Assembly (NCBI GenBank): GCA_022821905.1
Contig: JAJECS010000003.1
Location: 62,001-126,000 of the forward strand
Direction of reading: 5' to 3'
Length of the DNA: 64,000 nucleotides
From: Chloroflexota bacterium
GTDB lineage: Bacteria > Chloroflexota > UBA11872
Positions 5,767 through 64,000 of this stretch are shown here, piece by piece. Under the pieces are notes generated by a model. The model searched no databases, was not told the DNA's origin, and saw only the letters and a list, made by a program, of their open reading frames with translations. The position numbers were made by a program, and so were the translations under genes. Every line of letters begins with the position of its first letter. Within the stretch, counting starts at the first letter, position 1.

Positions 5767-6993
5767 ATGACCGCAATTCAAAGCCCGCCACTCCGCTCAC
5801 CTAAGCATGCCGAGTCGTCGATTCACCAACTATTGGACTCAGAAGTCTTGGCCACACCCTGCTTCATTTACCACGAAGGAACCATACACAGAATCTTAGA
5901 CCGCCTTACTGCCATTCAGGCGAAGGCTGACATAAACTTGCTTTACACCCTCAAGCCCTTCGCATTCCTCGACTTCCTTCAACTGATCTCCACCGAACTC
6001 TCAGGGTTCGCAGTTAGTTCGTTGTTCGAGGCTCGTCTGGCACACGAAGCAATTGGCAAAGACCATACACTACACTTCACTTCCCCTGGCATGCGGCCGA
6101 CTGAGATATCCGACCTCACAGAGTCCTGTGACTACATATCATTCAACTCCTTATCTCAATGGACTAGATTCTCATCCACATCAAGTCAGAACTCGAGCTG
6201 TGGATTAAGGATCAATCCTGAATTCAGTCTCGTCTCCGATTCCCGGTACGACCCATGTCAACGGCATTCGAAGCTCGGCGTTCCCATTGCTGACGCAGTT
6301 CGGGCGATCGAACAGTCCCCGGATGAATTCTCGGTGCTTAAGGGAATTCACTTTCATACAAATTGCGACTCCTCCGACTTTACCGGGATCCTTGAGACAG
6401 CACATATCATTGACTCTCACCTGAGCGAGACTATGTCATCTCTCGAATGGATTAACCTTGGTGGTGGCTATATTTTTGAGGACGGGCAAAGTTATTCAGG
6501 ACTGCTCGATGCCGCCGATCTGTTCACATCGAAGTATAATCTAGATGTCTTTATCGAACCGGGGGCCGCGCTGATCCGAGAGGCCGGATTCATCGTTTCG
6601 TCAGTTCTGGACGTCTTCGACAGCGGCGGGAAGACTATTGCTGTGCTAGATACGACGGTCAACCACATGCCAGAAGTCTTCGAATACAGATTTGAACCGG
6701 ACATAGCAAACCATGACAATGAAGCAATTCACAGCTATATTCTTGCTGGATCAAGCTGCTTGGCAGGAGACGTCTTTGGCGAGTACTCATTCAACAGACG
6801 GCTAGTACCTGGTGATCATGTCATATTTGAGAACATGGGTGCGTACACGCTTGCGAAGGCGCATATGTTCAACGGCATCGACCTGCCGTCAATCTACTCC
6901 CTGACGGCAAATGGTGAATTGGTTCTCAAGCGACAGTTCGGACAGTTGGCGTTTGCGGACCGCTGGAGGGGCAGGATCCATGCATTTGTATGA
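5767..6993 (+). CDS. Carboxynorspermidine decarboxylase-like PLP-dependent decarboxylase (alanine-racemase fold)
   Basis: LYTLKPFAFLDFL (PLP Lys region), LRINPEFS, HSKLGVPI, GIHFHTNCDSSDF, INLGGGY, IEPGAALIREAGF, SSCLAGDVFGEYSF, GDHVIFENMGAYTLAKAHMFNGIDLP, all NspC-like. Confidence 0.82.
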   Translation: MTAIQSPPLRSPKHAESSIHQLLDSEVLATPCFIYHEGTIHRILDRLTAIQAKADINLLYTLKPFAFLDFLQLISTELSGFAVSSLFEARLAHEAIGKDHTLHFTSPGMRPTEISDLTESCDYISFNSLSQWTRFSSTSSQNSSCGLRINPEFSLVSDSRYDPCQRHSKLGVPIADAVRAIEQSPDEFSVLKGIHFHTNCDSSDFTGILETAHIIDSHLSETMSSLEWINLGGGYIFEDGQSYSGLLDAADLFTSKYNLDVFIEPGAALIREAGFIVSSVLDVFDSGGKTIAVLDTTVNHMPEVFEYRFEPDIANHDNEAIHSYILAGSSCLAGDVFGEYSFNRRLVPGDHVIFENMGAYTLAKAHMFNGIDLPSIYSLTANGELVLKRQFGQLAFADRWRGRIHAFV

Positions 6994-8356
6994 GTCCGAA
7001 CTACAAATCCCTGCCGCTTCGGAGCATCGCGGTATGCTCGCGCACATTTCGAAGCTAGTTGGCTCGCATATGCAGAGCGAGCAAGCGATACCCATTCGCC
7101 TGGTGGTGACTGCCTCGGACGACAATTCGTATCACTGCGAGGTCGGTGCGATTTCGGGAGACCTGCCGGCAGGTAGCAAATCCCCAGATTCCATCTTTCG
7201 ATTCATTCGGCGTCGGCTTTCCTCGTCTAACCAGTTCAACGTCGTCCACCTAGTGCCCACAGGGATCGGTGCAGAGGTCGGTGGCCACGCTGGCGACGCC
7301 TCTCCCACTGCCACACTTCTCGCATCCGTCTGCGACACGCTCATCACGCACCCAAACGTTCTGAATGCCTCCGACATCATCGACATCCCGGACAACGCGC
7401 TCTATGTGGAAGGAAGCGTAATCTGCCGACTCCTGATGGGGACCGCTGGTCTACACGGGACTCGCGCAAATCGGATCCTCGTACTCATGGACTCTCACGA
7501 TGAACCCGTTTTCAACAACGCAGTTGTGAATTCAGTGAGCGGTGCACGGTCCACGTACGGACTGCGCGCAGAGGTGGTTGAACTGGATCCGCCGATGCAG
7601 ATGGCGTGGCGCGAGGCGTCCTCAGGCCGAGCCGCCGGTAAAGTTGATCAACTGGAACCGCTTTTCCAAGCCATCCAGCGAAACGCAGAAAAGTTCGATG
7701 CAGTCGCGATTACGTCAGTAATTGACGTACCCCAAAACTTCCATGACGACTATTTCCGGCTCGAGGGTGGGATGATCAACCCTTGGGGCGGAGTCGAAGC
7801 CCTCCTAACGCATGCAACATCAGTCCTTTACGACATTCCATCAGCGCATTCCCCAATGTTCGAATCCCTCGAGATTGCGAATTCCAACCCGGGCGTCGTA
7901 GACCCGCGAATGGCCGCTGAAGCCGTTTCCCTGACCTTCCTTCAGTCCATACTCAAGGGTCTCCAAAGGAGTCCGAGCATCGTGACCGATTTAGACCTCA
8001 TGCGCCGAGGCAGCGTCTTGACGATAGAGGATATCTCCTGTCTCGTCATCCCAGCTGGGTGCCTCGGCCTACCCACTTTGGCGGCCTTGGAGCAGGGGGT
8101 CCCGGTCATTGCCGTCCGGGAGAATCGCAACCTCATGCGCAATGATCTCGAAACCCTCCCCTGGCAAGACGGTCAATTCTTTACGGTCGAGAACTATTGG
8201 GAAGCTGCCGGACTCATCGCCGCATTGCAATCTGGCATAGCTCCCGAATCCGTGCGACGGCCGTTCCGGCGGACCATCGTATCTGCGAGTTCGACCCATA
8301 CTTTAGGGGACACCCCCGCATCCGTGCTTCCTGACCGAACCCTAACGAACCCCTAG
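6980..8356 (+). CDS. DUF3326-like protein of unknown function
   Basis: HLVPTGIGAEVGGHAGDASPTATLLASVCDTLITHPNVLNASDIIDIPDNALYVEGSVICRLLMGTAGL recalls the DUF3326 family from memory; start overlaps previous CDS by 14 nt. Confidence 0.7.
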   Translation: MHLYESELQIPAASEHRGMLAHISKLVGSHMQSEQAIPIRLVVTASDDNSYHCEVGAISGDLPAGSKSPDSIFRFIRRRLSSSNQFNVVHLVPTGIGAEVGGHAGDASPTATLLASVCDTLITHPNVLNASDIIDIPDNALYVEGSVICRLLMGTAGLHGTRANRILVLMDSHDEPVFNNAVVNSVSGARSTYGLRAEVVELDPPMQMAWREASSGRAAGKVDQLEPLFQAIQRNAEKFDAVAITSVIDVPQNFHDDYFRLEGGMINPWGGVEALLTHATSVLYDIPSAHSPMFESLEIANSNPGVVDPRMAAEAVSLTFLQSILKGLQRSPSIVTDLDLMRRGSVLTIEDISCLVIPAGCLGLPTLAALEQGVPVIAVRENRNLMRNDLETLPWQDGQFFTVENYWEAAGLIAALQSGIAPESVRRPFRRTIVSASSTHTLGDTPASVLPDRTLTNP

Positions 8357-8369
8357 TGGAGAGACAGCA

Positions 8370-9347
8370 TTGAAGAGCCCCACCAGCGGCACTTCTAGCG
8401 ACCGCCCGCCGTGGCAGCGACGCGAGAGATACGGGCTCTATGTACTAGCTCTCATTTTCATAATTCTTGGCATTGGCCTAGTCATTGCGGGCCTCTGGGT
8501 CGAATGCATAAGTTATAACTCGACTGACTGCTTGGATGATTGGTGGGCCAAATCGCTATCCGAAATCGGTATCGCGGCACTGATCGCAGGATTCCTCTTA
8601 GGCGGCTCTGAGTGGTATTTGAAGGAGACTCTATTCTCCGAAATTGAAACAAAGATCTCAAATACATTAGATTCTTTTCGAGTGTCAGCTTTTGACCTGC
8701 AACGCTTTGGTCAACTTCCGCCGCCTCTACAAGTTAGGCTTCGTGATCGAATCCTGGGCGCACCTGTCATACAGACTGATCTCGCTTACAAATACGAGCT
8801 TTCACCAGTTCAAATTGGTGACGATAAAGCCTATAAGGCAGTCGTTTCATCTCGCTCGACGTTTGCCAATCTTTCGGACACACAACAGCGATTCACCGTC
8901 AAAGAATCACTGCCAGCATCATCATTTGACACGAAGCAAAGCGACGAGGGATTCCAGGCGGTGACAAGTGAAATAGACGGCAAGGGGGAGTTTCCGTCCG
9001 AGCTTGTCCATCAGGCAATCATGAGTTGCAGTTCCAGCAAAGGCGCGGGAACTACGCTATTCGAGCGAGAGGCCACACTAGACCCTGGTTCCAAGCTGCA
9101 AATCGAGTTTAGGGGGGCTGCATACCTTCGGCCGGAGGAGTGGATTCCGCTTGAAGCATTTCTCCCTACTATCAATATGATCTGTGTAACGTCTGGCGCT
9201 GACCTCACATTCAACGGCCAACCAGGTGATGCTCTGAACGACATCTGGGAAGTTACCAAAGAGGATTCCGGAGAATATCGCTGGGAAATCAGAGGCGCCG
9301 TCTTGCCTGGGCAAGGCTTCGATATCTGGTTTGAAGAGGAAGAGTAA
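8370..9347 (+). CDS. Uncharacterised protein with two predicted N-terminal TM helices and a soluble C-terminal domain
   Basis: YGLYVLALIFIILGIGLVIAGLWV and LSEIGIAALIAGFLLGGSEW hydrophobic stretches, then ~250 aa soluble acidic domain; low-GC coding, 13 nt after preceding CDS. Confidence 0.75.
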   Translation: MKSPTSGTSSDRPPWQRRERYGLYVLALIFIILGIGLVIAGLWVECISYNSTDCLDDWWAKSLSEIGIAALIAGFLLGGSEWYLKETLFSEIETKISNTLDSFRVSAFDLQRFGQLPPPLQVRLRDRILGAPVIQTDLAYKYELSPVQIGDDKAYKAVVSSRSTFANLSDTQQRFTVKESLPASSFDTKQSDEGFQAVTSEIDGKGEFPSELVHQAIMSCSSSKGAGTTLFEREATLDPGSKLQIEFRGAAYLRPEEWIPLEAFLPTINMICVTSGADLTFNGQPGDALNDIWEVTKEDSGEYRWEIRGAVLPGQGFDIWFEEEE

Positions 9348-48011: not shown

Positions 48012-49709
48012 TCAGCCCTCGTCGGCGCCGTAGAGCGTCGTGGCGGGATGGAACGACGACCAGCCGAGCCAGTAGGCCAGGTGGCCGGGTAGGCGCGCGA
48101 GCTCGGTGCCGTCGGGATGGACGAGCGCCTCTTCAGTGACCTGCCAGACTGTTCCTTGCTCGTCGACGACGGTTCGCGGTTCACTGCCCGGCGCAAACTC
48201 CCGCTCGCCGCGCTCGAACGCCCGCACCGCCGCGCCGGCGCTCCAGGACACTTCGCCCCGACGCCGGTCGACGCCCTCGATGGTCAGCTCCTCGCCGAGC
48301 GCGACGAGCACCACCGCCTGATCGTCGACGGTGTCGTTGAGCACCCGGGCCTCGACAACGTCCGCCACGGCATACGCCCGAGCGGCATCCCCGAGCACGA
48401 GCGCGAATACGCGGTCCTTGGGGGCGAGACCATCCGCGGTCGGAGCGGGGAACATCACGTCGGGGCTGGCGAAATAGCCGCCGTAGGCCGCGCCGGGCGA
48501 GTAGTCGCGCCGGTGGCCGGTATTGATGCTCAGCACGGCGGTGGTGGGATTGGCCGTGCGCCAGGCTTCCCAGGTGGTCGTGACGATGGGGATGACATCG
48601 AGCCGGCCCGGATCGGCCGCCAGCGGCCCGAGGACGGGCTCGCCGGTGAGCTGATTCCAGAGGGTAAACGTGCCGCGGTCGTACATCAGCTTGTTGCTGC
48701 GCATCAGGAAGCCCGACGTGCCGATGCTGAGCACGTCGCCGCGATAGCGCCGGCTGAACAGTACCCCCGCGCCGCAGAGGGTGCAGTAGGCCAACGCCAC
48801 GGGCTCGCCGCCCACGACGTCGTTGGCCATCTCGTGCCAGTCGAGGATCCGGAGTGGATAGGCGCGGTAGTCGCCGTTGATCGCGACGCCGAAGACCACG
48901 TCGTCGGGCTCGAGGTAGGCCGCGTTGTCCGCCGCGACCATCGGGGCCGACTCCAGCGGCGGAATGCCGTCCAGACGTACGCCGCCCCAGACGACCTCCT
49001 CGAAGCGGATGCTGCGGGGCGCACGTTCATCGAAGAACCGGGCAAACTGCGGGTCGACGCGGCTGTAGATGCGACCCTTCCAGGCGGCGAAGCCCGGCAC
49101 CGTGGTCAGGTCGGTCCGCGCGTACCACTCGGCCCACTCCGCCCACGCTTCGTGTTGCTCTCCCGTGAGTTGGAACAGACCCTGCCGGGCCTTGTCCCAC
49201 GTGTCGGGATGAAACGCCCCAAGCTGCGCCGCCCGCAGAACCTCGATGAGCACCGAGATGAGCCGCTCGTCGCCCGTGGTTCCCATGTACGCCACCAGCT
49301 CCACCTGCGCCTCGGGAAAGGTCGGGTCGAGCAGCAGGCCGTCCAGCAGCGATTGCGCCTGATCGTCCGAAAGCCTGCGGTCGGCCGGCACGGGAGTGCC
49401 GGCAAGGGCCGGGCGCGGCGTGGGCTCGGCGGTCGGTGTTGGCGTGGGTGCGGGGGTCGGCGTGGGCGCGGGCGTGGCGGTGGGACCGGGCGTTGGCGAT
49501 GGAGGCGCGGTGACGATCACCTTGGCGGCAGCGGGGGGCCTGGTCGTTGAGGCCGTCGACGAGGTCTCGTCGCAAGCCGCCAGCGCGGCCGCCGCGCCCG
49601 CGGTCGCCAGCAGCCCAAGCGCGCGGCGGCGCGACACCACCGGGCGTCGCCGGGCGGGCTGCTCGGGCGGCAGGCGTTCAGCCGGGGAGTGAGTCACCTG
49701 TGCCCCCAC
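48012..49709 (-). CDS. DUF3179-family lipoprotein
   Basis: RRRALGLLATAGAAAALAACDE; PT-rich stalk; DWHEMANDVVGGEPVALAYCTLCGAGVLFSRRYRGDVLSIGTSGFLMRSNKLMYDRGTFTLWNQLTGEPVLGPLA. Confidence 0.85.
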   Translation of the reverse strand: MGAQVTHSPAERLPPEQPARRRPVVSRRRALGLLATAGAAAALAACDETSSTASTTRPPAAAKVIVTAPPSPTPGPTATPAPTPTPAPTPTPTAEPTPRPALAGTPVPADRRLSDDQAQSLLDGLLLDPTFPEAQVELVAYMGTTGDERLISVLIEVLRAAQLGAFHPDTWDKARQGLFQLTGEQHEAWAEWAEWYARTDLTTVPGFAAWKGRIYSRVDPQFARFFDERAPRSIRFEEVVWGGVRLDGIPPLESAPMVAADNAAYLEPDDVVFGVAINGDYRAYPLRILDWHEMANDVVGGEPVALAYCTLCGAGVLFSRRYRGDVLSIGTSGFLMRSNKLMYDRGTFTLWNQLTGEPVLGPLAADPGRLDVIPIVTTTWEAWRTANPTTAVLSINTGHRRDYSPGAAYGGYFASPDVMFPAPTADGLAPKDRVFALVLGDAARAYAVADVVEARVLNDTVDDQAVVLVALGEELTIEGVDRRRGEVSWSAGAAVRAFERGEREFAPGSEPRTVVDEQGTVWQVTEEALVHPDGTELARLPGHLAYWLGWSSFHPATTLYGADEG

Positions 49710-50015
49710 CCTAACCCTGACCCATCAAACAAGCCGGGACCGGACGCCCGCAGCGGTTGAGAGGTGTTTCATCCCGATCACAATGTCCGGCTTCCCCTTG
49801 AGCGGCCATGCACGCCCTTGAGCTATCATCGCCGCTACTGTCAGCGGCCCCAAGGTCAGGCCGCCGTATTTCACATGCGCTATTGACATCCATTGCCAGG
49901 ACTCCGGTGGGGCCCGTCATCAAGCCATACGTATTCGGCCGCGATGCCGATTGGCCTATCGTGGCAAAGCCACCATTCGGGCGCGTGATGCCGACCATCT
50001 TGCCGAGCGGCTGAC

Positions 50016-50891
50016 GTGACTGTCGACGCCAAAGACCTTCCCGCGCCCGAGGATTTGCACTTTGGGCATTTCGCGGCGGTTCCCGAGTATCGCCAAGTCA
50101 ACCGTGAGCTCGTGCAAGAGCTGTTTCGGCACATGCCGAATCCCTTCGTGCACGTCGATCTGGCCACGGGCACGGGACTGGTGCCGCAGCTCTTGATCGA
50201 GGAAGCCGAGAAGCGGGGATTCCGGGGCACGATCATCGGCATCGACCGCAGCCCGAAGGCGCTGGAGATCGCCGAGGCCACCACGCCGCGTCCGTCCAAC
50301 ATCGACCTGCGCTTCGTGGAAGCCGACGCGCGGTACCTGGAGCGGCTAAAGGGGGATGAACTCCCCGCCGACGGCGCCGACAGCCTGAGCATTCACGACG
50401 CCATCCACGAGATCACCGACCAGGAGGGCCAGCGCCGGGTCTACAACGGCATGGCCGCCATCGCCCGCGAGGGCGCCCTCCTGTCGTCGAACAGCACCTT
50501 CACGACCGTCTCAATGGCGGTGGCGAACTCGTTGCGGGGCCACGGCGAGTGGAAGCTGCACTTCATGCGGCTCACCGGCGCCCGCCGCAACGACAAGGGC
50601 GGCTCGCTGCCCTATCGCCGGCCCGAGGACTACCGCAAGATGATCGAGGAGGCGGGGTTCAAGGTCGTGCACGAGCTGGAGCGGGCGATCCACCTCACGC
50701 GCGAAGCCCTCAAGGCCATCGCCCGCTATCCGGCGTTCGTGGAAGGCGTGGCGGGCGACCTGGTCTTCCCGCGCAATTTCAGCCTCGCGGAGCAGAGCCA
50801 CTACCTCAGCCTGGCGGTCGACAAGGTGCGCTACGACGGCCTGCCACGCATCTGGCACGAGATCATCGGCCGGAGGCACGCGACGCCCTAG
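50016..50891 (+). CDS. Class I SAM-dependent methyltransferase
   Basis: FVHVDLATGTGLVPQLLIEEAEKRGFRGTIIGIDRSPKALEIAEA; SLSIHDAIHEI. Confidence 0.75.
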   Translation: MTVDAKDLPAPEDLHFGHFAAVPEYRQVNRELVQELFRHMPNPFVHVDLATGTGLVPQLLIEEAEKRGFRGTIIGIDRSPKALEIAEATTPRPSNIDLRFVEADARYLERLKGDELPADGADSLSIHDAIHEITDQEGQRRVYNGMAAIAREGALLSSNSTFTTVSMAVANSLRGHGEWKLHFMRLTGARRNDKGGSLPYRRPEDYRKMIEEAGFKVVHELERAIHLTREALKAIARYPAFVEGVAGDLVFPRNFSLAEQSHYLSLAVDKVRYDGLPRIWHEIIGRRHATP

Positions 50892-50911
50892 GCTCGCTCG
50901 TTCGGCGGCAC

Positions 50912-50998
50912 CGGAATGACAGGCGTGTCATTCCCAACCAGAAATGTCATTCCGAACACCCCCTCCTGTCATTCCGAACGCAGTGAGGAATCTAAGGA
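50912..50998. repeat. Cluster of GTCATTCC-type repeat units
   Basis: GGAATGACAGGCGTGTCATTCCC..TGTCATTCCGAAC..TGTCATTCCGAACGCAGTGAGGAATCT. Confidence 0.75.
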
Positions 50999-51085
50999 CT
51001 GTGGCACCAGCTCCGCGCCCCTGAGTTTCCTCGCCGCGCTGGACACACCGGAACGACGCCTGGGGCGCTCCAACGACGCCGGCCC

Positions 51086-51312
51086 GGTTCCCTCTCCCAC
51101 GGCGAGAGGGATAGGGTGAGGGGCTCCGGCGCGTTTCGGCAATCCCGTCCCCTCATCCCACCCTTCTCCCCAGAGGAGAAGGAGCCGGACGACCCGCCGG
51201 GTCAGCGATGCCGTTGCCGAAACTCTCCAGTCGCCGCCCACGCGAGTTGGCAACGGCGGTCCGGTTCCCTCTCCCACGGGGAAAGGGCCAGGGTGAGGGG
51301 CTCCGGCGCGGC
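51086..51312. repeat. Direct repeats of GGTTCCCTCTCCCACGG..AGGG..AGGGTGAGGGGCTCCGGCGCG (51086-51133, 51261-51310) with an intervening hairpin
   Basis: Read directly; related to hairpin at 47947. Confidence 0.8.
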
Positions 51313-51324
51313 TACCATGCCTCC

Positions 51325-54300
51325 ATGCCGCCGCTGACGACCGCGGTCGAGAACTACTTCGCCGACCTGCGGCGCATCCGCGCCTCCGGCGGCGCCACCG
51401 CCGAAACCTCCCGCTACACCCCGCTGGAGAACCTCCTCAACGCGGTCGGCGGCAGCCTCAGACCCAAGGTGTTCTGCATCGGACAACTGGCGAATTTGGG
51501 CGCCGGGCATCCCGACTTCGGCCTCTACGCCGCCAAACAGGTGCAGCGCGGCCAGCCGCGCGAGGGGCAGCTACCCGAGCACGGCGTGGTCGAAGTCAAA
51601 CCCGTCGACGACGACGCCTGGCTCACCGCCGACGGCCAGCAAGTCAGCCGCTACTGGGGCCGATATCGATTGGTCCTGGTCACCAACTACCGCGACTTCG
51701 TGCTCGTCGGCGAGGACGCGGCGGGACTTCCGGCCAAGCTCGAAACCTTCCGCCTGGCTGACTACGCGGAGGACTTCGACCGAAAGCTGGAGACGCCGCG
51801 AGCCTTCGCCAACCAGGTCGGCGCGGGTCTGGGCGAATACCTGCTGCGCGTTCTCAAGCACCGCGCCGTGCTGGCCGAGCCCAGGGACCTTGCCTGGCTG
51901 CTGGCCTCCTATGCCCGCGACGGCCTGGCGCGGGTCGAGGCCGCCGGCGACGCGCCGTCCCTGGCGGCCGTGCGCGGGGCGCTGGAGGAAGCCCTCGGCG
52001 TCAAGTTCGAGGGGGATCGCGGCGCGGCATTCTTTCGCTCCACGCTCGTGCAAACGCTCTTCTACGGCGTCTTTTCCGCCTGGGTGCTGTGGGCGCGGCG
52101 GGCTTCGCCGCCGTCGGGCGCGTTCGACTGGCGCACGGCCGTCTGGCACCTGCGCGCGCCGGTGCTCCGGGCGCTGTTCCAGCAGCTTTCCGATCCTGGC
52201 CGCCTGCAACCGCTCGGCCTGGTCGAGGTGCTGGATTGGACCAACGCCGCGCTCGACCGCGTGGACCAGGGCGCCTTCTTCGCCAGGTTCAACGAGGGCG
52301 AGGCGGTGCCCTATTTCTACGAGCCGTTCCTGCAGGAGTTCGACCCCGCACTGCGCAAGCAGTTGGGCGTCTGGTACACGCCGTCCGAGGTGGTGCGCTA
52401 CATGGTGGCGCGGGTGGACCGGGCGCTGCGGGACGACCTGGGCATCGCCGACGGGCTGGCGGCGGAGAACGTCTACGTGCTCGACCCCTGCTGCGGCACT
52501 GGCGCCTACCTGGCGGAAGTCCTGCGCCGCATCGCCGCCAACCTCCAGGACCGCGGCCTGGGCGCGCTCACGGGCGCCCACGTCAAGCGGGCCGCGCTCG
52601 ACCGTGTGTTCGGCTTCGAGATCATGCCCGCGCCGTTCGTCGTGGCCCACCTGCAAGTCGGTCTGACCATGCAGGACCTCGACGCGCCGCTGGCCGAGGA
52701 CGGCGACGAGCGCGCCGGCGTCTTTCTCACCAACGCGCTCACCGGCTGGGAGCCCACGGTGCAGAAGCCGCTGCCGTTTCCCGAGTTGGAGGAAGAACGC
52801 GACCACGCCGAACGGGTCAAGCAGGACACGCCGATCCTCGTGATCCTGGGCAATCCGCCCTACAACGGGTTCGCCGGCATGGCGGTCGACGAGGAGCGCG
52901 AGCTGTCCACGTCCTACCGCACCACCCGGCGCGTGCGACGGCCGGAAGGCCAGGGCCTCAACGACCTCTACGTACGCTTCTTCCGCATGGCCGAGCGCCG
53001 CATCGCCGAAAAGACCGGCCAGGGCGTGGTCTGCTTCATCTCCAACTACTCGTGGCTCGACAGCCTGTCGTGTCCGGGAATGCGCGAACGCTATCTGGAA
53101 GCGTTCGATGTGATCCGCATCGACAACCTCAATGGCGACAAGTACCGCACCGGCAAGGTCGCGCCCGACGGCTCGCCCGATCCCAGCATCTTCTCCACGC
53201 CCGACGATCCGGTCGGCATCCAGGTCGGAACCGCCGTCGCCACGCTGGTGCGCAAGCCCGACCACGCGCCCGCGGCGAGCGTCGAATTCCGCAATCTCTG
53301 GGGTCAGGCCAAGCTCGCCGATCTGACGGACACGGCAGACGCCGACCCGAATGCGCTCTACGACGCCGTCGAACCGATCTTGCCGCTGGGACTGCCCTTT
53401 GCGCCGGTGGCCGTCAGCCCGGACTGGTTCGACTGGCCGGCTCTGCCCGAGTTGTTCCCAACCTCATACCCCGGCGTCAAGACCAGCCGCGACGCGTTCC
53501 TGGTCGATACAGACCTCGACCGGCTCAAGGCGCGCGTCGCCGATTACTTCGATCCGGAGTTGAGCCACGACGAAATCGCGCGGCGCTATCCGGGTGTGAT
53601 GCAGAGCACGCGGCGCTTCAACGCCCCTGCGGTCCGCGACGCGCTGCTCCGACGCGGCGGGCCGACGGAAAGCGGCTTCGTCCGGTACGCATACCGACCG
53701 TGCGACACCCGCTGGCTCTATTGGGAAGCGGACACCAAGCTGTTGGATGAGAAGCGTGCCGAATACATGCCGCACGTCTTCGAGGGGAATCTGTGGTTGG
53801 TCACCCAGCAGAAACCGCGCCGGGAGTGGTCGCCGCCGCAAGTCATCTCGCACGTCGGCTGCCTTGACCTGATGGATCGGGGCGCTACTTGCGTTCCTGC
53901 CTGGCTCCGGGAAGACACCCTGGGAACCGACCCATCCGACACACGCCGTCCCAACCTGTCGCCTGCCGCCCGCCGCTACCTGGAACGCCTGGGCCTGGGT
54001 GTCAAGGACCTCTTCCACCACGTCCTCGCCGTACTCCACGATCCGGCCTACCGCGAGGCCAACGCCGGCGCCCTGCGCATGGAATGGCCCCGCATCCCGC
54101 TGCCCGGCTGGTCCGAATTGTCCGTCAGTCCGGCCGCCCCCTCCGTCATTCCGGTGAAAACCGGAATCCAGGGTCCACAGCGTCCCCTGCCCGAGGACTG
54201 GATACCGGCGTCCGCCGGTATGACGGAGGGAAGGGCCTCCGCCGGAAACCAGCCTTCGAGCCAAACAGCCAGCGGCCAAGCCGACGGCGCCGCGCCCGAC

Positions 54301-54828
54301 ATTGCTGAACAGGCCGCCCAAACCCTGGCCGCCTCCGCCGCCCGCGGGCGCGACCTGGCCGCCCTGCTGGACTCCGACGCGCCCGTCCCCGGCGTCACCA
54401 CCGGCCAACTCCGCCCCGAGATCGCCGCCATTGCCGTACCCACCACCACCCACGGCGGCAACATGACCGGCGACGACTTCGCCCTCACCGCCGGCTGGGG
54501 CCACTTCGGCAACAATCAGGCCGTCATGCCCGGCCAGGGCCGCCCCGTCGAACGCGCCTACACCCCAGCCGAACGCGAGGCGCTTGGCGCTGCCGTCGAC
54601 ACCCTCGGCGACACCACCTACGACATCTATCTAAACGACCGCGCCTACTGGCGCAACGTCCCCGCCGCAGTCTGGCGCTACAAGCTCGGCGGCTACCAGG
54701 TCCTCAAGAAGTGGCTCTCCTACCGCGAGCAAACCATCCTCGACCGCCCTCTCCGCCCCGAGGAAGTCCAACACTTCACCGACACCGCACGGCGGATAGC
54801 GGCGATTTTGCTGGTGACTGAGAAGTGA
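51325..54828 (+). CDS. Single-polypeptide restriction-modification-like enzyme (Type IIG/ISP-like): PD-ExK-like N-terminus plus N6-adenine DNA methylase
   Basis: HPDFGLYAAK...GVVEVKPVDDDAW (candidate PD-ExK), VWYTPSEVVRYMV, VLDPCCGTGAYLAEVLRRI (motif I), ILGNPPYNGFAG (motif IV), C-terminal TRD-like region. Confidence 0.85.
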   Translation: MPPLTTAVENYFADLRRIRASGGATAETSRYTPLENLLNAVGGSLRPKVFCIGQLANLGAGHPDFGLYAAKQVQRGQPREGQLPEHGVVEVKPVDDDAWLTADGQQVSRYWGRYRLVLVTNYRDFVLVGEDAAGLPAKLETFRLADYAEDFDRKLETPRAFANQVGAGLGEYLLRVLKHRAVLAEPRDLAWLLASYARDGLARVEAAGDAPSLAAVRGALEEALGVKFEGDRGAAFFRSTLVQTLFYGVFSAWVLWARRASPPSGAFDWRTAVWHLRAPVLRALFQQLSDPGRLQPLGLVEVLDWTNAALDRVDQGAFFARFNEGEAVPYFYEPFLQEFDPALRKQLGVWYTPSEVVRYMVARVDRALRDDLGIADGLAAENVYVLDPCCGTGAYLAEVLRRIAANLQDRGLGALTGAHVKRAALDRVFGFEIMPAPFVVAHLQVGLTMQDLDAPLAEDGDERAGVFLTNALTGWEPTVQKPLPFPELEEERDHAERVKQDTPILVILGNPPYNGFAGMAVDEERELSTSYRTTRRVRRPEGQGLNDLYVRFFRMAERRIAEKTGQGVVCFISNYSWLDSLSCPGMRERYLEAFDVIRIDNLNGDKYRTGKVAPDGSPDPSIFSTPDDPVGIQVGTAVATLVRKPDHAPAASVEFRNLWGQAKLADLTDTADADPNALYDAVEPILPLGLPFAPVAVSPDWFDWPALPELFPTSYPGVKTSRDAFLVDTDLDRLKARVADYFDPELSHDEIARRYPGVMQSTRRFNAPAVRDALLRRGGPTESGFVRYAYRPCDTRWLYWEADTKLLDEKRAEYMPHVFEGNLWLVTQQKPRREWSPPQVISHVGCLDLMDRGATCVPAWLREDTLGTDPSDTRRPNLSPAARRYLERLGLGVKDLFHHVLAVLHDPAYREANAGALRMEWPRIPLPGWSELSVSPAAPSVIPVKTGIQGPQRPLPEDWIPASAGMTEGRASAGNQPSSQTASGQADGAAPDIAEQAAQTLAASAARGRDLAALLDSDAPVPGVTTGQLRPEIAAIAVPTTTHGGNMTGDDFALTAGWGHFGNNQAVMPGQGRPVERAYTPAEREALGAAVDTLGDTTYDIYLNDRAYWRNVPAAVWRYKLGGYQVLKKWLSYREQTILDRPLRPEEVQHFTDTARRIAAILLVTEK
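54142..54227. repeat. Pair of inverted REP-like elements inside a CDS
   Basis: Left TCCGTCATTCCGGTGAAAACCGGAATCCAG (54142-54171); right CTGGATACCGGCGTCCGCCGGTATGACGGA (54198-54227), near reverse complements. Confidence 0.88.
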
Positions 54829-56153
54829 GCAACATCGTTTGGCAAGGCCTCCGACGACACGCTCGCCGTATCGCCGGATGGGACGGAGCGCCCTGGATTG
54901 CTTCGATAGTCGTCGTATTGGCAGTCGGAAGCGTTCTTTCCTGGGTCTTTTGGGATTGGCTGCACGACGATCGGGAATCTGTTAGCTCGACCGTTCGCAA
55001 TCTGGGATTGGTGATTGGGGCCGTCATTGCGGCATTGCTCGCTGTCTGGCGAAGTCGCGTAGCCGAGCGCCAAGCTCACGCAGCCCGTCGCCAAGTCGAG
55101 ACGGCCGAGCGGGGTCTACTAAGTGAGCGCTTCCAGCGGGGCACCGAAATGCTCGGGAGCGACGTTCTCATGGTCCGATTGGGCGGCATCGACGCGTTGA
55201 AGCATCTAGCCGACGAGCATCCGCACCAGTACCACATTCAGATTATGCAGCTGCTATGTGCTTTTGTCCGTCACCCGACCGAGCATGAAGAAATTGAGGT
55301 CAGGAGGGATCTCCGCCAGGATATCCAATCTGCGCTGCATGCAATCAGTGACTGTCACAGAAATCAATCTGAAATTGAGTATAATAGAGATTATAGATTA
55401 GAGCTACAAAACTCAAACATATCCTACGGTCTTCTTGCAAATCTAGACCTGTCGCAGGCATATTTGATTGGGGCTGATCTATCGCACTCTTTCCTTACTA
55501 GAACCGACCTTTCTGGCGCGGATCTGAGCCATGCCAATCTGCGCTCGACAAACTTGGCAGATGCCACACTCATCGCCGCCAACATTTGGAGTGCTGATCT
55601 GACGGGCACTGATCTACGTGGAGCAAATCTATATCGAGCAAATCTGGTCGGGCTGAATCTGTCTCAATGCAACCTTAATAGCGCGACATTATGTCGCGCT
55701 TTACTCAGTAATGTGGATGTGTCATCAGCGGATATATCTGATTCAGATTGTTCTCGAATAAATGCTCAGTCGGCGATGTTCATCAATACAAATCTACGCA
55801 GGGCAAATCTGTCGTTTGCAGGACTCGATAGTGCGAACATGCGCGCCGTACGTCTCGATAGTTCAAATTTGTACTCAGCTGTGCTTTTCGGTGCGGATCT
55901 CTCAGGTGCTTCGTTGAGGCGAGCGAATGTTTGCAATGGGAATCTACGTGATGCAGACCTGTCGAATGCGGATCTCTCTGAGGCGCTATTCTCTGAGGCT
56001 GGTGAGCATCCAGCAACGGGCATTACGCAAACCCAGCTCGATGAAGCCCGAGCTGATCCGGCTAGCCCACCGCAACTCGACGGCGTGCTCGACGCCGACA
56101 CTGGAAAGCAACTGGTCTGGCGCGGCGAGCCGCCGAACGACACGCCCGCTTAG
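54825..56153 (+). CDS. Membrane-anchored pentapeptide-repeat protein
   Basis: N-terminal TMs (WIASIVVVLAVGSVLSWVFWDWL, NLGLVIGAVIAALLAVW) then many A(D/N)LxX repeats (LIGADLSHSFLTRTDLSGADLSHANLRSTNLADATL...); GTG start overlaps preceding stop. Confidence 0.88.
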   Translation: MSNIVWQGLRRHARRIAGWDGAPWIASIVVVLAVGSVLSWVFWDWLHDDRESVSSTVRNLGLVIGAVIAALLAVWRSRVAERQAHAARRQVETAERGLLSERFQRGTEMLGSDVLMVRLGGIDALKHLADEHPHQYHIQIMQLLCAFVRHPTEHEEIEVRRDLRQDIQSALHAISDCHRNQSEIEYNRDYRLELQNSNISYGLLANLDLSQAYLIGADLSHSFLTRTDLSGADLSHANLRSTNLADATLIAANIWSADLTGTDLRGANLYRANLVGLNLSQCNLNSATLCRALLSNVDVSSADISDSDCSRINAQSAMFINTNLRRANLSFAGLDSANMRAVRLDSSNLYSAVLFGADLSGASLRRANVCNGNLRDADLSNADLSEALFSEAGEHPATGITQTQLDEARADPASPPQLDGVLDADTGKQLVWRGEPPNDTPA

Positions 56154-56183
56154 GCTGGGGCCGTCGCCTCGAAGCACGGCACC

Positions 56184-56339
56184 GTCCCCTTCGTCATTCC
56201 CGCGGAGGCGGGAATCTAGGGGCGCATAATCCCGACACGGCCGCGATCGAACGTCTGCGATTCCTCGCCTTCGGCTCGGAATGACGGGTTGGGGGCACGG
56301 CATGACAGGTGGCGCCGCCGGAGTGACGGCGGCGTGGCG
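56184..56339. repeat. Composite repeat copy A (REP core + GATTCCTCGC..CGGAATGACGG)
   Basis: Aligns with 56981-57150 in direct orientation with few mismatches. Confidence 0.85.
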
Positions 56340-56504
56340 CAATGGTCTCCCCGGTATCGGGTACGGGGCAGGCCCTCTGCCGAACTGACGAACGCGGATT
56401 GCGGCGATCCTGCTTCTGGGAGAATAGCGGTGGCCGGACGCAATCGACGACAGAGGATTCCAACCCGGGCAACAATGCGAGCCTGCTAACCAGGAGGCCA
56501 AACC

Positions 56505-56726
56505 ATGCGTCGACAGATGACCGCGATTATCGAGCGCGAAGGGGATTCCTACGTTGCGCTCTGCCCCGAGCTGGATATAGCAAGCCAGGGTGCGAGCGTT
56601 TCCGAGGCTCGCGCCAATCTCAAGGAAGCCCTCGACCTCTTTTTCGAGGCGGCTTCTGCCGACGAAATTCAGCGTCGGCTTCATGACGAAGTCTATGTGA
56701 CGCACGTTGAGGTAGCGGTTGGCTAG
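56505..56726 (+). CDS. hicB: HicB-family antitoxin
   Basis: MTAIIEREGDSYVALCPELDIASQGASVSEARANLKEALDLFFE. Confidence 0.85.
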   Translation: MRRQMTAIIEREGDSYVALCPELDIASQGASVSEARANLKEALDLFFEAASADEIQRRLHDEVYVTHVEVAVG

Positions 56727-56937
56727 GCTTCGGGTGCTGTCGGGTCGGGAGGTCTGCGTGATCCTGGCACGGCATGGGTTCGGTGAAGTGCGACGCCGGG
56801 GCAGCCACATACTGATGCAAAGGGTCGAAGGCGGGGATACGACTACCGTTCCGGTGCCAGACCACCGGGAACTCCGGACCGGAACGTTGAGGTCGATCAT
56901 CCGACAATCGGGGCTGCCCAGGACGTTGTTCGAGTGA
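56719..56937 (+). CDS. hicA: HicA-family mRNA interferase toxin
   Basis: VLSGREVCVILARHGFGEVRRRGSHILMQRVEGGDTTTVPVPDHRELRTGTLRSIIRQSGL; TTG start overlaps hicB end. Confidence 0.85.
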   Translation: MARLRVLSGREVCVILARHGFGEVRRRGSHILMQRVEGGDTTTVPVPDHRELRTGTLRSIIRQSGLPRTLFE

Positions 56938-56980
56938 GCAAGTAGCCCTTGAGCCTCGGCGTGCAGCGGCGGCGAACGCC

Positions 56981-57150
56981 GTCCCCTTCGTCATTCCCGC
57001 GGAGGCGGGAATCCAGGGGCTCATAGTCCCCGAACGGCCGCGATCGAACATCTGAGATTCCTCGCTGCGCTCGGAATGACGGAGTGGGGCGCACGGAATG
57101 ACTGGTGGCGGCGCGTGTGGGGTCGTGGTTGCGCCGGAGGTGACGGCGGG
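56981..57150. repeat. Composite repeat copy B
   Basis: GTCCCCTTCGTCATTCCCGCGGAGGCGGGAATCCAGGGGCTCAT...GATTCCTCGCTGCGCTCGGAATGACGG; direct repeat of copy A. Confidence 0.85.
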
Positions 57151-57274
57151 GTGGACTCCCGCCTTCGCGGGAGTGACGGGTTTTGAGCGTGCTGCGGCTC
57201 AGGTCGCTGAGGCCCGGATTCCGTAGGATTGAGGCCGGCATGCGGATAGCTTGCCGGTCCTGAAACCGGTGGTC

Positions 57275-61525
<4,251 letters not shown>

Positions 61526-61645
61526 CAATCCCGCGGCAGCGCTGCACAATCCACCCACTGAGCCGATGCGTACTGTTTCAGGGAGACGGCGTGCGCACCA
61601 GCTCAGCGTCGGCCGCGCGCCGCTGGCATACAGCGGAGATCGAGC

Positions 61646-62797
61646 ATGACGGATCGAATGCGTTGGCTGAGTCTGGCGGGCGCCCTCGCCGCCATTGCGG
61701 CGATCATCGCCGTAATCCTCGTCGTGGTGCAGCCGCCGCAGACAGTCAGCGTGTCGCCCGCGCCGGACGAACCGACCACGCCCGACGCCGCGCCGACCAC
61801 TCCGCAGGTCGCGGCCCCCGCGCCGGTGACGGCGCCGCCCACGCCCCAGGCCGCGGCAACGCCCGAGCCGACCGGGCCGCTGGCGCCCGAGTTCGTGCGC
61901 GTCACCCAGTGGCTCAACGGCCCGGCATTGAGCCTGGCCGACCTGCGCGGCCGGGTGGTGCTGATCGATGTGTGGACCTTCGGCTGCTACAACTGCCGCA
62001 ACACCCTGCCCTACCTCCGCGACTGGCACGCCAAGTACGCTTCCGAGGGTCTGCAGATCGTTGGCGTGCACACGCCCGAGTTTGAATTCGAGCAGGTCGA
62101 GGCCAACGTTCGCGAGGCCATGGTCCGGCTGAACGTGACCTGGCCGGTGGCGATGGACAACGACTGGGGCACCTGGCGCGCCTACAACAACCGCTATTGG
62201 CCGCGCAAGTACCTGGTGGACCAGCAGGGCCGGATCCGGTACGACGTGATCGGTGAAGGGTCGTACGCGGAGATGGAGCACCGCATCCGCGAGCTCCTCA
62301 CCGCGGGCGGGGCCTCGCTCGACCACATCCCGCTGGGCGGCGTGGACGAGGGCGCCGCGCCGGCGCAGACGGCGCTGTTTACCGGTGACTCGTGGGACGA
62401 GGGTCGGTTCCTGGCCGTCGAGGGCAGGGGTGAAGCGACGCGTCTCGGGCTGCGCGGCGGCTGGACGGTGCAGTCCGACCGCGTGCAGCCGGACCCGGAC
62501 GGAGGTTCGACCGCTTGGGACGCGACGGTCGTCGTCACGTCGGGCATGGCGAACCTGTCCGCGGCGGCGACCTCGGAAACGCCGGCGCTCCTGAAGGTGA
62601 CCCTGGACGGAGTGCCCATTCCGGAACCGCTGCGCGGCGCTCACGTCTTTGCCGCGGAGGACGGCGCGACCTATGTGTCGATCGGCGAGTTCGGCACCTA
62701 CGGGCTGCTGCGCAACGGCGACGTCGCACCGCGTGAGCTGCGACTGCACACCGCCGACGCCGGCCTGACGCTTTACACCTTTGTCTTCGGGGCATAG
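61646..62797 (+). CDS. Membrane-anchored thioredoxin-like (TlpA/DipZ-type) protein
   Basis: N-terminal TM, PT-rich linker, VVLIDVWTFGCYNCRNTLPYLRDWHAKYASEGLQIVGVHTPEFEFE. Confidence 0.87.
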   Translation: MTDRMRWLSLAGALAAIAAIIAVILVVVQPPQTVSVSPAPDEPTTPDAAPTTPQVAAPAPVTAPPTPQAAATPEPTGPLAPEFVRVTQWLNGPALSLADLRGRVVLIDVWTFGCYNCRNTLPYLRDWHAKYASEGLQIVGVHTPEFEFEQVEANVREAMVRLNVTWPVAMDNDWGTWRAYNNRYWPRKYLVDQQGRIRYDVIGEGSYAEMEHRIRELLTAGGASLDHIPLGGVDEGAAPAQTALFTGDSWDEGRFLAVEGRGEATRLGLRGGWTVQSDRVQPDPDGGSTAWDATVVVTSGMANLSAAATSETPALLKVTLDGVPIPEPLRGAHVFAAEDGATYVSIGEFGTYGLLRNGDVAPRELRLHTADAGLTLYTFVFGA

Positions 62798-62808
62798 CTC
62801 CTCCCGCC

Positions 62809-63525
62809 GTGGACCAATCGGTCAACCTGGCGGTGGCATTCGGGGCGGGAGTGGCTTCGTTCATCGCGCCGTGCACGCTCGCGCTGGTGCCGGCCTACGT
62901 GCTCTATCTGGGCGGCCTCACCTTGAGCGACGGCGACGCGGCGGGCGCGCGCGCGACCCGCGGCGCGACGTTACGAAGCGTCCTGGCCTTCACCCTTGGC
63001 TTCACTTCGGTTTTCGTGATTCTCGGGGCTTCGCTCGGAGCGCTCTCGCAGACGCTCGCCGACCATTCGGTGTGGCTGAACCGGGTGGGCGGCACGCTGA
63101 TCATCCTGCTGGGGCTGATGGCCCTGGGGCTGCTGCGGGTTCCGCTGGCGCAGCGCGGCTTCGCGTTTCGCCCGCACGTATCCGGCCAGCTGCATGTGGT
63201 GGGCGCGTTCTTGATCGGCGGCACGTTCGCGGTCAGCTGGGTTCCCTGCGTGGGACCGATCCTCGGGGCGATCCTGGTGCTGGCGGCCACCACGGCATCC
63301 GTGGGCGAAGGCGCGCTGCTGCTGCTGGCCTACTCGCTGGGGATGATGCTGCCGTTCGCCGCCGCCGGCGCATTTTCCGGGTGGACGCGGGCGCTGCTGC
63401 AGCGCCACGGCCACGCGCTCAACTACGCCACCCACGCCGGGGGCATTCTGCTTATCGCGCTGGGAATCGTGGTTTTCACCAATCTCATGCCCGTTATCGC
63501 CAGATATATTCCAATTGGCGTATGA
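62809..63525 (+). CDS. ccdA: CcdA-like cytochrome c biogenesis / thiol-disulfide transmembrane protein
   Basis: VASFIAPCTLALVPAYVLYLGG; GGTFAVSWVPCVGPILGAILVLA; 6 TM pattern. Confidence 0.9.
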   Translation: MDQSVNLAVAFGAGVASFIAPCTLALVPAYVLYLGGLTLSDGDAAGARATRGATLRSVLAFTLGFTSVFVILGASLGALSQTLADHSVWLNRVGGTLIILLGLMALGLLRVPLAQRGFAFRPHVSGQLHVVGAFLIGGTFAVSWVPCVGPILGAILVLAATTASVGEGALLLLAYSLGMMLPFAAAGAFSGWTRALLQRHGHALNYATHAGGILLIALGIVVFTNLMPVIARYIPIGV

Positions 63526-63628
63526 CGAGCACGGCGAACGGAATAGAATGGAGCAGGGTCACGGGTTGCGCCGAGGCGCGACGGGCGCCACTGGCGCAGG
63601 GCCTGGACCCTAGGACGGAGCGAGGAAC

Positions 63629-64000
63629 ATGAACGACACGCCAGACAGCCAGGCGGCGGCGCGGCTTGCGGCCGCCGTGGGGCAGATTCTTCCCGTCGAT
63701 GGTGAGCGCTCGCTGACGGGAATTGCCGCCAAGCATGACCTCGACATCGCGCCCGCAGACGACGTGGAGACACTCGCCGGCCAATTGATCGTCGCGGCCG
63801 GGGAAGCTGACCGGCTCGATGACGTCGTGCAGGCCCTGGTCACCGAGAGCGTCTTATACCGGCGGGACGCGCGCGAGCCGGTCGACTCCGTCGAATACGG
63901 CGAGCTGTCCGCGGCGGCGCAGGCGCTTGGGGTTACCGTGCCGCCGTTGGCGGAGATCGACGGCGCAACCGCGGACGACGACGGCGCCGAGCGGCGCACC
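63629..64000 (+). CDS. Uncharacterised protein, truncated by window end
   Basis: ATG at 63629, open to the window end (MNDTPDSQAAARLAAAVGQILPVDGERSLTGIAAKHDL...); not in ORF track because no stop is reached. Confidence 0.6.
   Translation, partial: MNDTPDSQAAARLAAAVGQILPVDGERSLTGIAAKHDLDIAPADDVETLAGQLIVAAGEADRLDDVVQALVTESVLYRRDAREPVDSVEYGELSAAAQALGVTVPPLAEIDGATADDDGAERRT

What the first reader, a model, noticed from the sequence alone, without database searches (positions are those of the whole stretch)
51325..56153. Candidate defence pair: single-chain R-M-like enzyme translationally coupled to a membrane pentapeptide-repeat protein
The R-M-like protein has a plausible PD-ExK site (HPDFG...VVEVK) plus methylase motifs I and IV on one chain, with no separate helicase or specificity gene. 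Its stop overlaps by 4 nt the GTG of a protein with two TM helices and a long pentapeptide beta-helix of lower GC. Pentapeptide proteins can mimic DNA; a membrane-anchored one coupled to an R-M enzyme could act as a regulator/immunity factor or as an abortive-infection effector. I am not aware of this as a described arrangement.
Basis: partly seen in the sequence, partly recalled or inferred. Interest (0 to 1): 0.7.

Follow-up and report, generated by a model that had tools for sequence, protein, structure and literature searches.

The report
Restriction enzyme with swappable defence partner
A one-protein DNA-cutting defence enzyme in an uncultured Chloroflexota bacterium shares its last bases with the start of a membrane pentapeptide-repeat protein gene; relatives show that this spot behind the enzyme is a recurring slot where different anti-phage genes are swapped in and out, and the membrane pentapeptide protein is one repeatedly chosen occupant.

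Summary
51325-54828 encodes a 1167-aa single-chain Type IIG-like restriction-modification (R-M) enzyme with an ISP-type recognition domain and no helicase. Its stop overlaps by 4 nt the GTG of a 442-aa protein (two predicted TM helices, helical linker, long pentapeptide beta-helix).

The pairing recurs. In the 41 held genomes of the class, 13 of 18 genes of this TM-pentapeptide family lie downstream, same strand, of a homologue or remnant of this R-M gene (chance expectation about 0.004). Two more lie beside other R-M genes. The 4-nt overlap recurs in five lineages; dN/dS is about 0.1-0.25.

Partners are not co-inherited (Mantel r = -0.14). In a congener the pentapeptide gene is cleanly absent; in another it is replaced by one 38% identical, with the R-M gene and flanks conserved. 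Elsewhere the slot holds DSR2, Abi-alpha, TIR-like, Schlafen, PIN, HNH, Vsr/Dcm or a second R-M gene. A 15-bp direct repeat of the R-M 3' end brackets the inserted gene here.

Best reading: the R-M gene is the constant part of a modular defence cassette, and the TM-pentapeptide gene is an exchangeable, probably independent, membrane defence effector. The DNA-mimic/immunity role is disfavoured. Biochemical action is untested.

The parts
51325..54828 (+). Type IIG-like single-chain R-M enzyme (1167 aa): N-terminal PD-(D/E)xK-type region, gamma-class N6-adenine methylase, ISP-type target recognition domain, C-terminal tail
   Evidence: Pfam/PADLOC hits, motif conservation in 74 homologues, annotated 'type ISP restriction/modification enzyme' in plasmid relatives at 51-57% identity
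51511..51600 (+). Putative PD-(D/E)xK nuclease motif (D64...E90-x-K92), followed by Q106
   Evidence: Conserved in 71-72 of 72 aligned homologues; fold of residues 6-330 only weakly matched (best hit Type IIG BpuSI, E 0.32)
54120..54298 (+). In-frame insertion (res ~932-991) containing an inverted-repeat element (VIPVKTGIQ...WIPASAGMTE) inside the R-M gene
   Evidence: Present in 2 of 74 homologues (window and L072); the GTCATTCC/GGAATGAC motif recurs at 15 places in the window
54792..54806 (+). Left copy of 15-bp direct repeat GCGGATAGCGGCGAT (encodes part of ..RRIAAI.. at the R-M 3' end); last point of homology to the gene-free allele
   Evidence: Alignment to G003/L213; only two copies in the window, 0 expected
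54825..54828 (+). GTGA: R-M stop codon overlapping the start of the pentapeptide gene
   Evidence: Sequence; the same type of overlap in L187, L188, L194 and L122
54825..56153 (+). TM-pentapeptide protein (442 aa): two TM helices, helical linker domain (ERFQRGTEMLGS..VRLGGI..YHIQIMQLLCAFVR), about 40 pentapeptide repeats, conserved C-terminal cap (GITQTQLD..LVWRG)
   Evidence: Pfam Pentapeptide, alignments A1-A3, AlphaFold2 model pLDDT 81, Foldseek best hit HetL 3du1
56394..56427 (+). Displaced original 3' end of the R-M gene (GCGGATTGCGGCGATCCTGCTTCTGGGAGAATAG): right copy of the direct repeat plus old stop
   Evidence: Contiguous homology to the native R-M 3' end and downstream DNA of the congener G003

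Best explanation
A Type IIG-like R-M gene is the constant member of a modular defence locus. A swappable cargo gene is loaded at its 3' end and is expressed with it, often by translational coupling. Here and in about ten related lineages the cargo is a membrane-anchored pentapeptide-repeat protein. Shown by sequence: recurrence, coupling, purifying selection, reshuffling of partners, and interchange with known anti-phage effectors. Inferred: the protein sits in the cytoplasmic membrane (N-in/C-in) with its helical domain and beta-helix in the cytoplasm, and is a second-line defence effector, most likely an abortive-infection type acting at the membrane when infection gets past restriction. Cargo exchange probably uses recombination at the R-M 3' end, because truncated 3'-end copies flank the cargo.
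For: 13 of 18 family members in the class lie downstream of this R-M family (chance estimate). Overlap or short spacing at the junction in nine loci. dN/dS about 0.1-0.25. Mantel r = -0.14, p = 0.84. Same-locus alleles with a different pentapeptide gene (G005) or none (G003). The slot elsewhere holds DSR2 (PADLOC 2.4e-158), Abi_alpha, TIR-like, Schlafen AlbA_2, HNH, Vsr/Dcm or a second Type IIG enzyme. Two further family members lie beside an MmeI-type R-M gene and beside an N4/N6-methylase+Mrr gene. Truncated R-M 3'-end copies downstream of cargo on the same strand in six further loci; where full-length queries detect them, no other part of the R-M gene is repeated. Cross-phylum case L113, Acidobacteria-type MAG. 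C. jejuni cj0031 parallel (PMC8713573).
Against: No experiment. The pentapeptide family has no PADLOC hit. Its own action (membrane damage, sensing, scaffolding) is inferred only from anatomy and guilt by association. Several cargo genes lie on the opposite strand or up to 150 nt away, so coupling is common but not universal. Genes can accumulate in defence islands without working together.
Confidence: 0.62

Rival explanations
1. The pentapeptide protein is a DNA mimic or R-M regulator (immunity factor) that restrains the R-M enzyme at the membrane, as Qnr/MfpA proteins act on gyrase.
For: Translational coupling to the R-M gene; beta-helix fold shared with HetL, MfpA and Qnr.
Against: R-M genes of the same family are intact without it, including at the same locus in a congener; the gene persists next to R-M remnants (G033, G011); tract length varies from a few to about 40 repeats; beta-helix charge is -8 to +4, near zero in most; Type IIG enzymes carry their own protective methylase.
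Confidence: 0.12
2. No functional link: the 3' end of the R-M gene is merely a recombination hotspot in a defence island, and the pentapeptide gene is passive, possibly non-defence, cargo.
For: The slot accepts many unrelated genes; partner phylogenies are uncoupled; truncated 3'-end copies flank cargo.
Against: Many alternative cargos are defence-type genes; 13/18 family members choose this slot and two others sit near different R-M genes; the 4-nt overlap is re-formed in five lineages; purifying selection.
Confidence: 0.2
3. The pair works as one system: the pentapeptide protein tethers or localises the R-M enzyme to the membrane so that it meets incoming phage DNA.
For: Coupling, and a cytoplasmic-facing beta-helix suited to protein binding (inference from the model).
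Against: Partners are reshuffled with no sign of co-evolution (Mantel r = -0.14); the enzyme family occurs with many other cargos or none.
Confidence: 0.12

Closest known systems
TaqII/TaqIII family (Type IIC/IIL, PMC5587805) and Type IIG/IIL enzymes with solved structures (7lo5/7lvv)
   Same: Single chain of about 1100 aa with PD-(D/E)xK, helical, gamma N6-methylase and C-terminal recognition domains; recognition domain resembles Type ISP; T. aquaticus plasmid hits at 31% identity
   Different: Only about 31% identical; no coupled cargo slot was looked for or found in the text consulted for TaqII/TaqIII
Type ISP enzymes LlaGI/LlaBIII (5ffj, 4xqk)
   Same: Homologous methylase and C-terminal recognition domain (Pfam Type_ISP_C); PGAP calls relatives 'type ISP restriction/modification enzyme'
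   Different: No SF2 helicase/ATPase domain (1167 aa against 1406-1578 aa; no helicase family hit), so not Type ISP by definition
Defence genes embedded in R-M/BREX loci (Payne et al. 2024 preprint as cited in PMC11411939; TgvAB inside a Type I R-M operon)
   Same: A separate anti-phage gene carried inside or coupled to a defence locus
   Different: Host here is a single-gene Type IIG enzyme, cargo sits at its 3' end and often overlaps its stop; cargo family (TM-pentapeptide) is not in PADLOC
Campylobacter jejuni cj0031 Type IIG locus (PMC8713573, Table 2)
   Same: Type IIG gene followed in one strain by an AAA ATPase gene and in another by a pentapeptide-repeat gene
   Different: Relation to this R-M subfamily not tested; the text found does not discuss the downstream genes; TM helices in that pentapeptide protein not checked
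Qnr/MfpA/HetL pentapeptide proteins
   Same: Right-handed beta-helix
   Different: They lack the two TM helices and the conserved helical linker; NCBIfam scores are far below cut-offs

Membership tests
Type IIG (single-chain) R-M enzyme | Nuclease and N6-adenine methylase on one chain | tested here: met
   Methylase motifs 74/74, D...ExK motif conserved in 71-72/72; PADLOC Type IIG model 6e-83
Type IIG (single-chain) R-M enzyme | PD-(D/E)xK fold of the N-terminal region | tested here: inconclusive
   Motif conserved, but fold search best hit is BpuSI (Type IIG) at E 0.32 and no PDB sequence match
Type IIG (single-chain) R-M enzyme | Recognition domain on the same chain | tested here: met
   Pfam Type_ISP_C 1.9e-42 at residues 709-927
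Type IIG (single-chain) R-M enzyme | Site-specific cleavage and methylation | not testable with these tools
   Needs enzyme assay or methylome
Type ISP R-M enzyme | SF2 helicase-like ATPase domain between nuclease and methylase | tested here: not met
   No helicase family in gene 1
Qnr/MfpA DNA-mimic pentapeptide proteins | Membership by curated family score | tested here: not met
   All Qnr/MfpA NCBIfam scores are far below cut-off (e.g. 44 against 240 bits)
Qnr/MfpA DNA-mimic pentapeptide proteins | Acidic DNA-like surface of fixed length | tested here: not met
   Beta-helix net charge -8 to +4 across homologues, tract length highly variable
Defence gene coupled to or embedded in an R-M locus | Recurrent adjacency of a non-R-M gene to the R-M gene | tested here: met
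   13 of 18
Defence gene coupled to or embedded in an R-M locus | Anti-phage activity of the cargo | not testable with these tools
   No phage assay; other cargos in the slot match known systems

The most novel reading that the evidence does not exclude
The 3' end of this Type IIG gene is a dedicated cargo-loading site. Cassettes of about 1-4 kb, each with a defence gene, insert there and supply a new R-M C-terminus whose stop overlaps the cargo start, displacing the old 3' end (direct repeats of 15 bp to about 180 bp). This gives a chassis on which defence effectors are swapped between species and phyla. The TM-pentapeptide protein would be a new membrane anti-phage effector family.
Probability: 0.35. 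Interest if true: 0.8.

Novelty: new variant of a known kind. Interest (0 to 1): 0.6.

Why it matters
If right, this enzyme family is a natural bait for finding defence genes: its 3' slot already holds DSR2, Abi-alpha, TIR-like, Schlafen, PIN and HNH genes, so the uncharacterised occupants (TM-pentapeptide, L089/L116/L084/L097-type genes) become ranked candidates. It would give membrane-bound pentapeptide proteins, common and mostly without function, a testable role. It also offers a mechanism by which a restriction gene gains and exchanges a coupled effector, with naturally occurring empty and swapped alleles (G003, G005) for comparison.

Tried and rejected
Decayed tandem R-M copies as the source of the downstream 3'-end copies: rejected as the general case, because full-length queries find only the last 40-80 residues downstream of cargo; a true tandem exists only in L141. 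Type ISP membership: rejected for lack of a helicase. DNA-mimic role: disfavoured (charge, length, dispensability). Co-evolution of the partners: no correlation. Phage-borne origin: IMG/VR gave one weak hit. Plasmid-borne TM-pentapeptide relatives: only three weak hits. Fold search of the N-terminal R-M region: no significant match. An early list of cargo offsets used wrong R-M stops for some loci (e.g. L110, L134); it was redone with checked stops, and L110/L134 are not used as coupling cases. Pentapeptide proteins outside this TM family are frequent in these genomes; whether they too lie near R-M genes was not counted systematically.

Full report
Check of the observation. Gene 1 matches Pfam Type_ISP_C and N6_Mtase and the PADLOC Type IIG model. 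Gene 2 is a pentapeptide protein with no PADLOC match. In 74 homologues DPCCGTG and NPPY are invariant, and D64, E90, K92 and Q106 are conserved in 71-72 of 72.

What gene 1 is. [quoted passage not shown] The chain is 1167 aa and has no helicase family hit, so it is a Type IIG-like single-chain enzyme with an ISP-type recognition domain, like TaqII/TaqIII (PMC5587805). NCBI's pipeline names plasmid relatives (51-57% identical) 'type ISP restriction/modification enzyme'. An AlphaFold2 model of residues 6-330 has mixed strands and helices; its best PDB match is the Type IIG enzyme BpuSI at a non-significant E of 0.32, so the nuclease rests on the conserved motif.

What gene 2 is. Two TM helices, a conserved helical linker, a pentapeptide beta-helix and a conserved C-terminal cap. 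The linker defines a family (alignment A2) found in 14 of 41 genomes of the class and in only 2 of the other genomes among 400 of the phylum. Positive residues flank the TM pair on both outer sides, which suggests N-in/C-in (inference). dN/dS between homologues is about 0.1-0.25.

Recurrence. In the class, 13 of 18 A2-family genes lie within about 2 kb downstream, same strand, of the R-M family or its remnant: G000, G004, G005, G007, G011 (two in tandem), G012, G014, G018, G020, G025, G033, G037. With a generous 30 R-M copies the chance expectation is 0.004; relatedness makes the formal p-value meaningless, but the partners are not simply co-inherited. Across 12 pairs the distance matrices are uncorrelated (Mantel r = -0.14, p = 0.84): for example window and G005 R-M proteins are 84% identical while their pentapeptide proteins are 38% identical, and G005 and G018 pentapeptide proteins are 69% identical while their R-M proteins are 70%. 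One Acidobacteria-type MAG (L113, titled Bryobacterales) has the pair, and that is the only strong family member in its genome. The five exceptions include one downstream of a DUF559 gene and an MmeI-type R-M gene (L175), one tail-to-tail with an N4/N6-methylase+Mrr gene (L172) and one near a SIR2 gene (L173).

Coupling. The cargo start overlaps the R-M stop by 4 nt in the window, L187, L188, L194 and L122, by 1 nt in L195, and lies 17-23 nt downstream in L189, L190 and L196.

The slot is variable. At the same position other members of the R-M family carry DSR2 (L076 E 2.4e-158; L138), a TIR-like/Nuc_deoxyrib_tr family with 4-nt overlap (L093, L107, L109, L137), Abi_alpha (L143), Schlafen AlbA_2 (L086), HNH (L117), Vsr+Dcm+HATPase (L080/L178), a second Type IIG enzyme (L075/L179), PIN (L081; L104 by similarity to it) and DUF4238 (L129). 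Many further occupants have no known family. Pentapeptide genes, and other cargo genes examined, generally have lower GC3 than the R-M genes (0.50-0.65 against 0.73-0.87 for pentapeptide).

A base-level allele series. G005 is colinear with the window from 48016 to 64000 at about 85-90% except between 54806 and 57152, where it has a different pentapeptide gene (which itself carries an in-frame TAG). G003 has the R-M gene but no pentapeptide gene: its homology runs to window 54806 and resumes at 56394. The junction is a 15-bp direct repeat, GCGGAT(A/T)GCGGCGAT, found only at these two places in the window (0 expected) and three times in the genome. The sequence from 56394 is the old R-M 3' end, including its stop; the present last codons (LLVTEK) are not shared with G003. 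Truncated copies of the R-M 3' end also follow the cargo, same strand, in L195 (two), L089, L116, L117, L120 and L122, and never lie upstream at E < 1e-3; full-length queries, where they detect these copies, find only the last 40-80 residues. Solo 3'-end fragments exist elsewhere in class genomes. This fits cargo loading by recombination at the R-M 3' end; whether it is homologous or site-specific is open, as repeat length varies.

Mechanism. The R-M enzyme should work alone: it is intact without the pentapeptide gene in many relatives. The pentapeptide gene is intact beside R-M remnants (G033, G011) and decayed beside intact R-M genes (G007:C70, G005), so neither needs the other. With known abortive-type effectors in the same slot, the likeliest role is an independent second-line effector at the membrane, expressed with the R-M gene. 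The effector step itself is inference.

Relation to known systems. Embedded defence genes in R-M loci are known (Payne et al. 2024, cited in PMC11411939; TgvAB). A table in PMC8713573 shows the C. jejuni cj0031-type Type IIG gene followed by an AAA ATPase gene in one strain and a pentapeptide-repeat gene in another; the passages found discuss the R-M gene but not its neighbours. The literature searches here found no report of a membrane pentapeptide protein as an anti-phage effector or of 3'-end cargo loading, but only the open-licence library was searched.

Noticed in passing
window 54120-54298: An inverted-repeat element of the kind dispersed through the window (GTCATTCC/GGAATGAC ends, 15 places) is inserted in frame in the R-M gene, adding about 60 residues at a point where other homologues carry shorter insertions; shared only with L072.
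   Followed up: partly
L089, L116, L117, L120, L122, L195 downstream of cargo; G000:C24:241457, G002:C3, G002:C12, G010:C89, G029:C9: Truncated copies of the R-M 3' end flank cargo or stand alone with no R-M body nearby, as if scars of cargo exchange.
   Followed up: partly
window 56505-56937: A HicA toxin gene (Pfam 2.8e-17) preceded by a short HicB-like ORF lies just downstream of the pentapeptide cassette; the region is shared with G003 and missing in G005.
   Followed up: partly
L195 7476-11010: Two successive R-M 3'-end copies bracket a second pair of ORFs (520 and 448 aa), suggesting stacked cargo blocks behind one R-M gene.
   Followed up: no
L093, L107, L109, L137: A conserved ~330-aa TIR-like/Nuc_deoxyrib_tr family (CPIWGTPATE...SPRAGGRYFI), start overlapping the R-M stop by 4 nt; a second recurrent cargo candidate (truncated in L137).
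   Followed up: partly
window 5767-9347: Low-GC block (50-58%): PLP-dependent decarboxylase-like gene, DUF3326 gene overlapping it, and a TM protein; probably a horizontally acquired cluster.
   Followed up: no
L089:9357-10094, L084:9916-11013, L116:5055-5585, L097:9412-10602/L119:6840-7958: Uncharacterised genes in or near the same downstream slot without Pfam matches where scanned (L119 was not); candidate new defence genes by position.
   Followed up: no
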